Assembly: GCF_000375585.1 (NCBI RefSeq)
Contig: NZ_AQWP01000002.1
Span: 682,001 to 746,000, forward strand
DNA: 64,000 nt
Reading direction: 5' to 3'
From: Sinorhizobium meliloti 4H41
GTDB taxonomy: Bacteria; Pseudomonadota; Alphaproteobacteria; Rhizobiales; Rhizobiaceae
Below are positions 59,937 through 63,564 of the stretch, one piece after another. Numbering within the stretch: position 1 is the first letter of the stretch; the number at the start of each line of letters is the position of its first letter. The notes below the pieces were generated by a model. It was not told the DNA's origin and made no database searches. It saw nothing but the letters and a program-made list of their open reading frames with translations. The position numbers and the translations under genes were made by a program.

Positions 59937-60158
59937 CTATTGCAACGAGTGAATTCTGGCGTCGAAGCCCGCCGCCGCGATGACGAGCTCGCTGCGATCC
60001 CGCAACTCGTTGGCAACGGCCTGCAGTGCCATCTCGACGCAATACTCGACGGCCTGAGCGTCCAATGCGCGGGCGCTATCGCGAATGTGGCTGAGCATTC
60101 TGGCGATGCTCGCAAGTTCCGTTTCAGTATCCGTCAAGGACGAAGGATGATTATTCAT
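59937..60158 (-). CDS. Small helical protein downstream of the YcaO gene
   Basis: The 73-residue protein starts at the ATG at 60158 after GGGGGTT. It is mostly helical, with a conserved-looking amphipathic segment ALDAQAVEYCVEMALQAVAN near the middle and one Cys (residue 40). No family can be named; short proteins of this pattern are frequent beside regulatory genes of rhizobia. It is 136 bp downstream of the YcaO gene on the same strand, so it may be its partner, its substrate or an unrelated small gene. Confidence 0.5.
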   Translation of the reverse strand: MNNHPSSLTDTETELASIARMLSHIRDSARALDAQAVEYCVEMALQAVANELRDRSELVIAAAGFDARIHSLQ

Positions 60159-60294
60159 TTGAACCCCCATTCCGTGCGCTTCCCTGACGGCGACTATAGA
60201 CGAGTTCGGATTTTTCGCGCGTTGCACGAGCGTTGCACTCGCACCGGTAGAGTACCGGAGTAGATCTCGCCAAATGCTTTGCGGGTCTGCTCCT

Positions 60295-61476
60295 TTATGA
60301 TGCGAGCGCTTTGGAAAGCGCGCGCGGACCGAAACGGCGCGCTCTTTCACCGTCAGGGTTTTCAAGATCGGGAACGAAGATCTTGACGACCGCGAACGGC
60401 AGAGCTTCATCCGACAGGCGCACCACAATTACAGATTGCACGTCTGCATCCTTCAGATGATCGATGGTGTGCCGCAGCAGCCCGTCCGGATCGCCGCCTG
60501 CATGCGGCGCCGACGGCGCATGCAAGCACGGCGCCGCGAGGAAGGCCCGGCGGGTCGAGTCCGGCAAAGGCCGGCTGAAGGTTTCGGGAAAGACGTCGTC
60601 CCGCGCGCCGCTCATGAAGGTGAGCCGCGACTGCGCCGCTTCGGTCACCGCTCTGATCGCCGCGCGAACGGCAAAGACATGCGCCCCGCAGCCGCTTGTC
60701 ACATCGACGAAACGACCATCGTCCCTGATGGCGATATCGGCGGGGCCGAGCAGTGCCAGAAAGCAGGGAACATCGATGTCGCTGGTAATGTCGAAAAGCC
60801 GGAGATCGAGACCGGCGGCTCTGATGCGCTCGACGAGACTATTCAGCGCTGCATCGCCGAACCCCTCGGGAGCAACGCACTTGCGGTAACGGCTCTGCGG
60901 CCCTGACACGCCCCACAGGACATGGGCGTCGCGCTCGATGCGCTCCAGCAGCCCGTGCAATGTCGCTTCCTGAATGGAATTTCCCGATGCGAGCCCATCC
61001 GACGACATCCAGAAACGCGAAGGCCGGGTACGGTCCAACTGCGCCGCTGCGAGCGGTACGAACACCTCGCGGCCGGAGATCAGGTCGGAGCCGGGGGCCC
61101 AGAGCAGTTCTTCGTCCGGACCGATTTCCTCCTGCCCGGCCGCAATCAGCCCCGGAAGCGGGTTCACGGTCCGCCCGGACGCCTGCAGGGAGCGCGTCGT
61201 GGCCACAATGGTTTCGACGGCGGGTTCGCCGGCAACAGCGCGCTCCAGCGCCTCCATGACGGCGGAAACCTTCGCCTCCACATCCGTCAGCCCTTTGCCC
61301 TGTGCGACCACGATGGATCGCGCATTCGGCGTATAGGCGCACCAGACGGGGATTCCGATCCTGTCCAGTCCCGTGTGCCTGGCGATCCGGGTTATGCCGA
61401 AACCGGAAAGCAGAGGCCTTACACGTTCGAAGGTCTCTTCCGGGCTCAGCACACGATCGGAATATTCATTGCGCAA
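60295..61476 (-). CDS. YcaO-domain protein (ATP-dependent peptide/protein-modifying enzyme)
   Basis: YcaO enzymes activate backbone amides with ATP to form azolines, thioamides or related groups. The three ATP/metal motifs are present: KVSAVMEALERA, then NSIQEATLHGLLERIERDA, then RAVTEAAQSRL. The C-terminus (VKIFVPDLEN ... SKALAS) lacks the PxPxP tail of classical cyclodehydratases. The start is uncertain: a TTG at 61476 follows GGGGTGGGG and avoids overlapping the upstream small gene (393 residues), whereas an ATG at 61569 would overlap it by 65 bp. No TfuA, E1-like or oxidase gene is nearby. Confidence 0.82.
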   Translation of the reverse strand: MRNEYSDRVLSPEETFERVRPLLSGFGITRIARHTGLDRIGIPVWCAYTPNARSIVVAQGKGLTDVEAKVSAVMEALERAVAGEPAVETIVATTRSLQASGRTVNPLPGLIAAGQEEIGPDEELLWAPGSDLISGREVFVPLAAAQLDRTRPSRFWMSSDGLASGNSIQEATLHGLLERIERDAHVLWGVSGPQSRYRKCVAPEGFGDAALNSLVERIRAAGLDLRLFDITSDIDVPCFLALLGPADIAIRDDGRFVDVTSGCGAHVFAVRAAIRAVTEAAQSRLTFMSGARDDVFPETFSRPLPDSTRRAFLAAPCLHAPSAPHAGGDPDGLLRHTIDHLKDADVQSVIVVRLSDEALPFAVVKIFVPDLENPDGERARRFGPRALSKALAS

Positions 61477-61504
61477 GTCGGCCCCACCCCGATGCCGGGA
61501 CCGG

Positions 61505-61720
61505 TCACCCGTCGAAATGGCCCGAAAACACCTTGTCGGCGGAGGACACAGCCACTGCGAGGTCGACATTCTTGACGACCGTTCCCCCTTGTGCCCGGAG
61601 CTTGTCCGCCGCGGCCAGGTCGCCCGTCACCTGATCGAGCGGCGTGACGGTTCCGCTCCCCAGGTCCGCCAGCCACAGACCCGGCTCGCCGGGAATCCCA
61701 ATCACAACAACCTTCGCCAT
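61505..61720 (-). CDS. Small 71-residue protein of unknown family, candidate YcaO substrate
   Basis: The protein begins MAKVVVIGIPGEPGLWLADLG and ends KVFSGHFDG, has no Cys and looks like a small beta-alpha unit rather than a long disordered leader. The ATG at 61720 has GAGGGA seven bases upstream. It lies 17 bp after the stop of the SARP-type regulator and about 28 bp before the YcaO start, so it is clearly translated as part of this operon. It may be the substrate of the YcaO enzyme, an accessory binding protein, or neither. Confidence 0.65.
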   Translation of the reverse strand: MAKVVVIGIPGEPGLWLADLGSGTVTPLDQVTGDLAAADKLRAQGGTVVKNVDLAVAVSSADKVFSGHFDG

Positions 61721-61737
61721 ATCGCTATCCCTCATCC

Positions 61738-63564
61738 TCAAAACCCCGCCTTTTTCAGCCCCTCACGATAGAGGTCCTTCTGCCATTGTTCCTTGATCGG
61801 AACGACGGCAAGCCACTTGTCGACGTCGAATGTCGGATTGCTCTTCAACGCCCGCATCCGGTACGCCCGTGCTTTCTTCTGGTCGCCGAGCATCGCCCAG
61901 CTTGCCGCAAGCAGCCTGTCGCCGGGCGACTTGTCCTTCATTCTCTGAACGTAGCCGATCGCGTCCTCATAGTTTTCGAGGAAATAGCTGGCACCGGCAG
62001 CGCTCCAGAAATACGTGTCGGGCGCCAGCGGATTGAGCGAAAGCGCCTTGGCCAGCTTGTCGAGCGCCTCACGCGGACGGGAGACATGAACGAGCGTGTC
62101 GGCGTGGCTGTAAAGCACGTCGGCATAATGCGGGCTCAGGTTTTCCGCGAGATCCAGCGCCGCAAGGCTCTCGTCGAGATCACCCTGATAGAGTTTGACG
62201 ACACCGAACTCGCGGTGTGCTCCGGGCAGGTCCTCATTGCTTTCGATCGCCTCCTTGGCGTGATGCTCCGCCAGCGAAAGAAGTTCACGATCGCCGCGGG
62301 CCGTCAGGATCCACTCGATTGCATAGGTGCGCGCCATCCCGCTCAGCGCCGGAGCAAAATCCGGCTTGTGCTTGAGCGCGGCCCTGAAATCGCGGCGTGC
62401 CCTGCGGATTTCGGGAAGCCCCACGCTGGAGAGGTTTCGCAGGCCGGCGAGGTAGGCGTAATAGGCCTCCGGATGGGCCAGATAGTCGATACGCGCGGCA
62501 CGGCCGGTCTCGACCTGCTCCGTCACCGCCCGGGCGACATGAAAGGCGATTTCCTGGCGTTGCTGAAGGAGACCGACCGGAGATATCGCGAACCGCTCCG
62601 CCCAGACGATCGCGTCGGACGGCAGAAATATGAGCTGCGTGAAAAGTCCCTGGTCCGACATGCGGCAGTCGAGCGCATAGGTGACGCCATGCTTTTCCAG
62701 GAACGCAGCCTTGTCCGCGGCATCCCGTATCCGCTCCGCCGTGTATGGAGCAACGACGGACATCGATCGTTGCGCACATAGCCCGATCGTGATGTCCTCG
62801 ACCACAGCCACGCTGACCGCGTGAAGCATCGGATCGCTGCCGAAGGCCGCGGGGGGAAGCAGAGCGACACGGGGTGCCGGCGCAACCGGCGGAGCACTCG
62901 CCTCCGTTGCGAACTCCCTGCCAAACCCAGCCTGCGGCAGCCGGGCCCTTCCCGGCTCGCCGCCCCCGATGACCAGCCCCCCGCCGGTCATCCGCTCCAG
63001 GATCGCACGCACGGCCGTATCCATCGGATCGAGCTCGAGGAGGTGCATGCACGCGCTGCGCCGCAGAGACCTGTCGGCAAACCGCTCTTCGCCGCCGAGA
63101 AGCGCCGCGCGCATCGCCTGCGTGAACAGCCGCCGCTGTTCTCCGACCCAATCCGCATAGCGACCCGGTGGCACATCCGCGCTTGCCAGAAACCCGTCGC
63201 GCCAGAGCGCAAGCCCGGTGCGGAACGCCTCTTCCGAACGCTCCAGCGCCTCGAAACCGTCGACGTCGCAGGTAATCTCCCCCACCGTCACCTCGGTTTC
63301 CGTCGCCGCAATGAGCGGCCCCGACTCCGCAGCAAGATGGCGCATGCGCCACAATGTCGACCGCAGGTTCTTGAAAGCGACGCTCTTTTCCCGTTCGGGC
63401 CAGATCAGCATTGCGAGCTTTTCACGGGAAGCCGTTTTCTCCCCGGACACGCAGAGATAGGCGAGTATCAGCGACCCCCGCTCGGGACACGCCACAACCA
63501 CGCCGCCGGAATCGACCAGCCGCAACTCCCCGAATGTCTGCAGACGATAATGCGGCCCCGCCAC
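61738..63564 (-). CDS. SARP/BTAD-type transcriptional regulator with TolB-like and TPR regions
   Basis: The 608-residue protein has an N-terminal winged HTH (residues 1 to about 95, with KLAMLIWPEREKSVAFKNLR), a bacterial transcriptional activator domain (about 100-190), a TolB-like/FlgO-like beta region (about 232-345, RVALLPPAAFGSDPML), and C-terminal tetratricopeptide repeats (about 370-560). A GTG start with GAGG five bases upstream is used. It heads the operon with the small protein and YcaO gene, and probably controls it or a wider set. The signal sensed is unknown. Confidence 0.85.
   Translation of the reverse strand: MAGPHYRLQTFGELRLVDSGGVVVACPERGSLILAYLCVSGEKTASREKLAMLIWPEREKSVAFKNLRSTLWRMRHLAAESGPLIAATETEVTVGEITCDVDGFEALERSEEAFRTGLALWRDGFLASADVPPGRYADWVGEQRRLFTQAMRAALLGGEERFADRSLRRSACMHLLELDPMDTAVRAILERMTGGGLVIGGGEPGRARLPQAGFGREFATEASAPPVAPAPRVALLPPAAFGSDPMLHAVSVAVVEDITIGLCAQRSMSVVAPYTAERIRDAADKAAFLEKHGVTYALDCRMSDQGLFTQLIFLPSDAIVWAERFAISPVGLLQQRQEIAFHVARAVTEQVETGRAARIDYLAHPEAYYAYLAGLRNLSSVGLPEIRRARRDFRAALKHKPDFAPALSGMARTYAIEWILTARGDRELLSLAEHHAKEAIESNEDLPGAHREFGVVKLYQGDLDESLAALDLAENLSPHYADVLYSHADTLVHVSRPREALDKLAKALSLNPLAPDTYFWSAAGASYFLENYEDAIGYVQRMKDKSPGDRLLAASWAMLGDQKKARAYRMRALKSNPTFDVDKWLAVVPIKEQWQKDLYREGLKKAGF

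What the first reader, a model, noticed from the sequence alone, without database searches (positions are those of the whole stretch)
59937..63564. Compact YcaO locus with its own SARP-type regulator and two small proteins
Seen: four leftward genes with gaps of 17, about 28 and 136 bp: a SARP/BTAD-TPR regulator, a 71-residue protein, a YcaO enzyme with all three ATP-site motifs, and a 73-residue helical protein. Known: YcaO enzymes usually work with a TfuA, E1-like/C-protein or dehydrogenase on a short precursor peptide. None of these is present here. Inference: a RiPP-like or protein-modifying system of minimal composition, possibly a housekeeping or signalling modification rather than an antibiotic.
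Basis: partly seen in the sequence, partly recalled or inferred. Interest (0 to 1): 0.78.

Follow-up and report, generated by a model that had tools for sequence, protein, structure and literature searches.

The report
Rhizobial modified-peptide pathway, genes split apart
The enzyme gene sits beside the gene for the small peptide it probably modifies, while its usual helper protein, which looked missing, is encoded elsewhere in the same genome; together they look like one peptide-making pathway shared by rhizobia.

Summary
The four genes are real and correctly placed, but they are not a partner-free YcaO system. In 62 of 80 named relatives' loci the genes form one operon: XRE regulator - SARP/TPR regulator - p71 - YcaO - TfuA - p73. 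In the window's Sinorhizobium lineage TfuA has left the locus. It survives next to its XRE gene on another contig; in S. meliloti that place is pSymB. Of 19 genomes of the split lineage, 19 keep such a TfuA, 16 of them behind that XRE gene. YcaO and TfuA score best with the models of the pair that thioamidates methyl-coenzyme M reductase, below cut-off. p71 is best read as the precursor peptide: a folded leader plus a flexible tail; 17 of 125 distinct family members carry significant tandem repeats there. p73 tracks YcaO (33 of 33 genomes with a close YcaO, 0 of 27 others) but has no known role. Best reading: a TfuA-YcaO RiPP family, seen here only in Hyphomicrobiales, its genes split over two replicons in this lineage. 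Substrate, thioamide chemistry and the peptide's function are inferred, not shown.

The parts
61738..63564 (-). SARP-like regulator with C-terminal TPR array (608 aa)
   Evidence: adjacent to p71 in 71 of 73 named loci that hold p71
61505..61720 (-). p71: proposed RiPP precursor peptide; leader about residues 1-46, tail/core about 47-71
   Evidence: tail repeats in relatives; folded leader, flexible tail; column frequencies
60295..61476 (-). YcaO enzyme (about 393 aa from a TTG start; the start is uncertain, the frame is open to 61569)
59937..60158 (-). p73: 73-aa accessory protein with an invariant Tyr-Cys pair, role unknown

Best explanation
The locus is one part of a TfuA-YcaO peptide-modifying (RiPP) pathway. 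p71 is the precursor: its N-terminal part is a folded leader that would dock on YcaO/TfuA; its C-terminal tail (about residues 47-71, ending VFSGHFDG) is the core. YcaO would use ATP to activate a backbone amide in the core, probably at or next to the near-invariant Gly67; TfuA, supplied in trans from another replicon, would help to bring in sulfur so that the product is a thioamide. The SARP/TPR protein, nearly always beside p71, regulates it; p73 is an accessory of YcaO. Shown by sequence: the gene family, co-occurrence, repeats in the p71 tail of relatives, the trans location and retention of TfuA. Inferred: that p71 is the substrate, thioamide as the chemistry, the site, the leader/core cut and the biological role.
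For: 62 of 80 named loci have exactly XRE-SARP-p71-YcaO-TfuA-p73 on one strand; gene by gene: YcaO 80, p73 78, XRE 74, p71 73, SARP 71, TfuA 70, one of these a 199-base piece. The 7 named loci lacking p71 have it elsewhere in the genome, 7 of 7. All 32 genus genomes (window's included) hold YcaO and TfuA. Of 19 genomes with this TfuA away from YcaO's 3' side, 16 keep XRE-TfuA at another place, the other 3 keep a different TfuA. TfuA under purifying selection, dN/dS 0.20 and 0.27. In G025, G064 and G065 TfuA lies divergent to SARP-p71 while YcaO is elsewhere. 17 of 125 distinct p71-family proteins have significant internal repeats, starting at residue 34 or later. AlphaFold2: strands and a helix to residue 43 at pLDDT 81-89, tail falling to 48. 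Nearest solved structures: MJ1094 for YcaO, E 6e-30, and a TfuA domain protein, 6xp8, E 7e-29. NCBIfam: TIGR03266 and NF033432, both below cut-off.
Against: No chemistry or product is shown. In 108 of 125 distinct members the tail is not significantly repeated, the window's included. NCBIfam thioamidation models stay below their cut-offs. No protease or exporter gene was recognised as part of the operon; the double-glycine-like site (Gly45) is 67 of 72 but is missing in multi-core relatives. TfuA-independent thioamidating YcaOs are mentioned in print (PMC6511847, passages), so TfuA in trans may not be needed. The second TfuA of the same genome could also serve. G045 and G051, which have YcaOs only 38-40% identical, gave no credible p71 hit.
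Confidence: 0.66

Rival explanations
1. p71 is not a substrate but a small adaptor or recognition protein; YcaO-TfuA modifies a housekeeping protein (as in methyl-coenzyme M reductase or ribosomal uL16), and the tail repeats are binding modules.
For: p71 has a folded N-terminal part; a p71 is in all 32 genus genomes; E. coli YcaO acts on uL16 (PMC13063428, abstract and one section); best family matches are McrA-glycine thioamidation proteins.
Against: The tail varies from one to many repeats with changing units, typical of core peptides; the YcaO is far from the E. coli/S12 family (10.4 bits, cut-off 700); a regulator gene is nearly always coupled to p71.
Confidence: 0.15
2. The YcaO makes azolines or amidines (TOMM-like) on p71 without a sulfur-supplying partner, and TfuA elsewhere is unrelated.
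For: YcaOs acting without a C protein, as in bottromycin, are described (PMC4603692, passages); TfuA is unlinked here; Ser60 is 63 of 72.
Against: No conserved Cys in the tail and the residue before Gly67 is Ser 38, Ala 20, Gly 11 of 72, so a side-chain-dependent ring at that place is not conserved; TfuA is beside this YcaO in most named relatives and a TfuA is kept in 19 of 19 split genomes.
Confidence: 0.1
3. A decaying remnant: the window lineage lost TfuA from the locus and the pathway no longer works.
For: Split, reshuffled parts; relatives carry a second, distinct XRE at the SARP locus and the window's closest clade none; some S. meliloti pSymB records list no TfuA feature, though that gene table is incomplete; L104 keeps only a 199-base TfuA piece.
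Against: YcaO, TfuA and p73 are retained in 32 of 32 genus genomes, and dN/dS is well below 1.
Confidence: 0.07

Closest known systems
Thiovarsolin pathway (Streptomyces varsoviensis, VarA/VarY/VarT)
   Same: Precursor + YcaO + TfuA suffice for thiovarsolin B; precursor cores in the family vary from non-repeating to five repeats (PMC6511847, passages).
   Different: No similarity of precursor noticed (not tested by search), other organism group, here SARP/TPR and XRE regulators and p73, and genes split apart.
McrA-glycine thioamidation pair (methanogen YcaO-TfuA; MJ1094, NF033432, TIGR03266)
   Same: Closest solved YcaO and closest curated models for both enzymes; that MJ1094 and 6xp8 belong to this pair is recalled.
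   Different: Acts on a large enzyme in archaea (PMC5589413, start of abstract in the listing); scores here are below the equivalog cut-offs.
Thioamidated RiPP clusters mined in Rhizobium (Malit et al. 2021)
   Same: Adjacent YcaO-TfuA clusters; over 500 in Rhizobium (PMC8120280, passages and one section); the linked form seen here is very probably among them (not checked).
   Different: Mining required YcaO and TfuA adjacent, so the split form would be missed; p71 family not named in what I read; supplements not read.
Trifolitoxin and tfuA (Rhizobium T24)
   Same: A rhizobial RiPP with TfuA implicated (PMC4603692, passage); the cluster is given as tfxABCDEFG, without tfuA (PMC9670871, passages). 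That tfuA acts from a separate place is my recall.
   Different: Trifolitoxin is described as azole-modified; its precursor was not compared.

Membership tests
TfuA-YcaO thioamidated RiPP | YcaO with intact ATP-binding motifs | tested here: met
   Key Ser/Glu/Arg/Gln of the three motifs conserved in 78 rows; which motifs count is recalled
TfuA-YcaO thioamidated RiPP | TfuA encoded in the genome | tested here: met
   PF07812 at G000:C6:221682-222041, E 1.6e-44, plus a second one beside another YcaO; Lys59 and Ser76 conserved, 73 of 73 rows with a letter there, of 74 (that a Ser-Lys pair is catalytic is recalled)
TfuA-YcaO thioamidated RiPP | TfuA adjacent to YcaO | tested here: not met
   Absent beside the window YcaO; directly behind YcaO in 69 of 80 named loci, one a 199-base piece
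TfuA-YcaO thioamidated RiPP | Precursor peptide with leader and core next to the enzymes | tested here: inconclusive
   p71 fits by repeats, co-occurrence and model; substrate status not shown
TfuA-YcaO thioamidated RiPP | Thioamide in the product | not testable with these tools
   needs mass spectrometry
TOMM / azol(in)e RiPP | Conserved Cys/Ser/Thr cyclisation site in the core | tested here: inconclusive
   No conserved Cys; Ser66 only 38 of 72, but Ser60 is 63 of 72
TOMM / azol(in)e RiPP | E1-like C protein or FMN dehydrogenase nearby | not tested
   No profile search for these was run; nothing of the kind was recognised among the neighbours
E. coli-type YcaO (S12/uL16 factor) | Match to NF040716 | tested here: not met
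   10.4 bits, cut-off 700
SARP regulator | BTAD and winged-helix Pfam matches | tested here: inconclusive
   None for the window protein; each in 3 of 25 members; predicted secondary structure compatible
RRNPP-like peptide-receptor pair | TPR regulator gene next to the gene of the peptide it binds | tested here: inconclusive
   Adjacency met; binding not tested; the RRNPP definition is recalled

The most novel reading that the evidence does not exclude
A Hyphomicrobiales peptide-sensing system: the SARP/TPR protein, nearly inseparable from p71, is the receptor of the thioamidated p71 tail, and in Sinorhizobium the signal is only completed when the chromosome (peptide, YcaO) and the second large replicon (TfuA) are both present, tying two replicons together.
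Probability: 0.13. Interest if true: 0.82.

Novelty: new variant of a known kind. Interest (0 to 1): 0.58.

Why it matters
If right, a model symbiont (S. meliloti and kin) makes an undescribed modified peptide through a pathway that adjacency-based genome mining would miss, because its two enzymes lie on different replicons. It gives a testable precursor family with modular cores, and a natural test of whether TfuA is required in trans.

Tried and rejected
Rejected: housekeeping E. coli-type YcaO. Rejected as proven: that the window's YcaO came by transfer from Rhizobium. The quick tree puts split YcaOs beside a Rhizobium clade (support 83), but a clade of split plus Ensifer YcaOs is not rejected (AU p 0.42 and, without long rows, 0.22). 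My first AU test (p 5e-35) was badly posed, since it left Ensifer rows outside the group, and is withdrawn. Holding orphan TfuAs together with Rhizobium TfuAs was not rejected either (p 0.158; that set includes the L104 fragment). Only the XRE genes clearly show two lineages.

No use: fold search with p71 (best E 0.8; some peptide-recognition chains near the top, not significant); fold search with the regulator (in the 50 rows shown, TPR proteins as far as titles and recall tell); Pfam with p71 (best E 0.038 in single members of 72, none for the window). Samples beyond the order: p71 in 1 of 385 genomes of the class sample (the window's own) and 6 of 398 of the phylum sample (own included), all of the same family. 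One C39 peptidase match exists on another contig of the window's genome; not linked. Literature: in nine paper searches no listed title or abstract start names this p71 family; subscription papers and supplements were not available.
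Full report
Observation. The window's last 4 kb hold four leftward genes exactly as described. YcaO matches PF02624 at E 3e-67 over the whole profile, and the key residues of its three motifs are conserved in 78 aligned rows. The 71-aa and 73-aa proteins match nothing in Pfam or NCBIfam at E up to 1. The regulator shows TPR-type families only by Pfam; its predicted structure (mean pLDDT 80) has an N-terminal strand/helix part, a helical part, an alpha/beta part and a long TPR array, which I read as winged helix, BTAD-like, a further domain and TPR.

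Where it comes from. The nearest named relatives are Sinorhizobium (Ensifer) species. Over the locus the window is about 94% identical to an S. meliloti record and 97.4% to Sinorhizobium sp. K101, C101 and M103.

The operon elsewhere. Gene order was read in 152 loci, some of them overlapping views. The 80 named loci were chosen by similarity to this YcaO, so they are biased to close relatives. Among them 62 have exactly XRE-SARP-p71-YcaO-TfuA-p73 on one strand. Gene by gene: YcaO 80, p73 78, XRE 74, p71 73, SARP 71, TfuA 70; of the 70 TfuA, one (L104) is a 199-base piece and one (L081) lies upstream and divergent. Median gaps between matched stretches are SARP-p71 26, p71-YcaO 29, YcaO-TfuA 5 and TfuA-p73 159 bases.

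The missing TfuA. The window's genome has two TfuA genes. One belongs to a second, distant YcaO-TfuA pair on the same contig. The other is alone on contig C6, right after an XRE gene and before an ANTAR regulator and an NrtA-like gene. In Ensifer relatives (L053-L063, 11 loci) XRE stands at the head of the operon and ANTAR and NrtA-like genes follow behind p73, so C6 looks like the old site with the middle removed. The contigs of this draft genome are not assigned to replicons. In the plasmid collection 83 records match this stretch, 63 over at least 80% of it, among them pSymB-sized NC_003078 of S. meliloti 1021, while the YcaO stretch matches only 4 records, all 3.5-3.7 Mb. One of the four, CP090106, is labelled pSymB in its record but is of chromosome size; I take it as mislabelled. 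For strain K101 the two halves are on records of 3.52 and 1.70 Mb.

Retention. All 32 genus genomes (window's included) have this YcaO and at least one TfuA. Two of these, G001 and G024, hold another YcaO-TfuA beside a p71 relative. Of the other 19, 16 have XRE-TfuA at another place; in 13 of these 16, the window's own included, a further gene of the C6 flank lies in the stretch read. G021 has a different TfuA divergent to its own XRE, G011 a different one with no XRE in the 14 kb read, and G025 one divergent to its SARP-p71. So 19 of 19 keep one. dN/dS of TfuA is 0.20 and 0.27 in two comparisons.

p71 and its coupling. p71 was found elsewhere in all 7 named genomes that lack it beside YcaO, and in G025, G001 and G024. 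Against this, G045 and G051, whose YcaOs are only 38-40% identical, gave no credible p71 hit; G045 has a 121-aa ORF at that place with a faintly similar start, not pursued. In 46 loci with a p71-family ORF from whole-genome searches (two of them second views of the same places) a SARP-like gene lies within the 1.5-kb flank in 46 and YcaO in 32. In some of these the SARP gene is divergent and may belong to a neighbouring p71 copy. On the whole SARP-p71 moves as a pair. Two named multi-core loci, L109 and L122, show no SARP match.

p71 as precursor. In 72 aligned members Asp19 is invariant, and in the tail Gly67 is 69 of 72, Asp/Glu70 72 of 72 and Ala55 69 of 72. In 17 of 125 distinct family members a self-alignment test (200 shuffles each) finds repeats, with best offsets of 7 to 51 residues and starts at residue 34 or later; the other 108 do not pass. 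Examples are four copies in L109 (counted by eye), three in L065, and long arrays in L213 and L231-L233. The AlphaFold2 model gives three strands and a helix to residue 43, then a tail with one short helix and falling confidence. Folded leader plus variable, repeatable tail is what a RiPP precursor would show. The first 46 residues end in Gly-Gly; Gly45 is 67 of 72 and residue 46 is Gly, Ala or Ser in 68 of 72, which resembles a double-glycine cut site (recalled), but multi-core members lack it.

Distribution. The p71 profile hits 31 of 397 genomes of the order sample, 1 of 385 of the class sample (the window's own) and 6 of 398 of the phylum sample, all of the window's family. The samples share genomes, and only the best candidates per genome were scored. 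At this sensitivity the family looks restricted to Hyphomicrobiales.

p73. In 60 relatives p73 is in 33: exactly those with a YcaO of at least 366 bits; 0 of 27 others. The genus makes up 32 of the 33, so these are not independent events. Among named loci L109 and L122 lack it. It can be separated from YcaO by about 4 kb (L043, L045). Tyr39-Cys40 is invariant in 12 aligned rows.

Mechanism. YcaO's nearest solved relative is MJ1094 (E 6e-30) and TfuA's only PDB match is 6xp8 (E 7e-29); the best curated models are both McrA-glycine thioamidation proteins, below cut-off. By analogy with the thiovarsolins, where precursor, YcaO and TfuA suffice and cores may repeat (PMC6511847, passages), the likely reaction is thioamide formation in the p71 tail. 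That TfuA releases sulfide from a ThiS-type donor is recalled (the paper was not held). The site near Gly67 is inference.

History. The split YcaOs form one clade (support 99) and 16 orphan TfuAs fall with Ensifer TfuAs (support 90). The XRE beside SARP in many split genomes is a different lineage from the XRE beside TfuA (support 99). That suits two cluster copies with complementary losses, but tree tests do not force it.

Known or new. TfuA-YcaO clusters are numerous in Rhizobium in a published mining study that used adjacent pairs (PMC8120280, passages and one section); the linked operon is very probably in that set, which I could not check. The p71 family, its repeats, its coupling to a SARP/TPR protein, p73 and the trans arrangement were not described in anything I read.

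Noticed in passing
own genome G000:C2:517799-521731 (L002, L072): A second, distant YcaO-TfuA pair beside a 1000-aa regulator; no clear precursor between them was recognised.
   Followed up: partly
L071 8310-10146 (G017:C48): Five related ORFs (three of 77 aa, two predicted at other lengths) in tandem next to a YcaO-TfuA-YcaO set; looks like another RiPP cluster.
   Followed up: no
L068, L069, L070: A 99-100 aa protein sits between a 1080-1100 aa regulator and a YcaO-TfuA pair; possibly a sister precursor family.
   Followed up: no
L067 10661-11026 (G045): A 121-aa ORF between a SARP-like gene and YcaO-TfuA starts faintly like p71 but is not found by the p71 profile; perhaps a distant precursor.
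   Followed up: no
L043 and L045, between YcaO and p73: About 4 kb with two genes (362 and 819 aa) separates YcaO from p73.
   Followed up: no
plasmid records CP050512 and CP050561: The features listed under the XRE-TfuA-ANTAR stretch include 'antibiotic resistance protein' where other records list TfuA-like protein.
   Followed up: no
plasmid record CP090106 (L252): A 3.72-Mb record labelled pSymB carries the YcaO locus; its size suggests a mislabelled chromosome.
   Followed up: no
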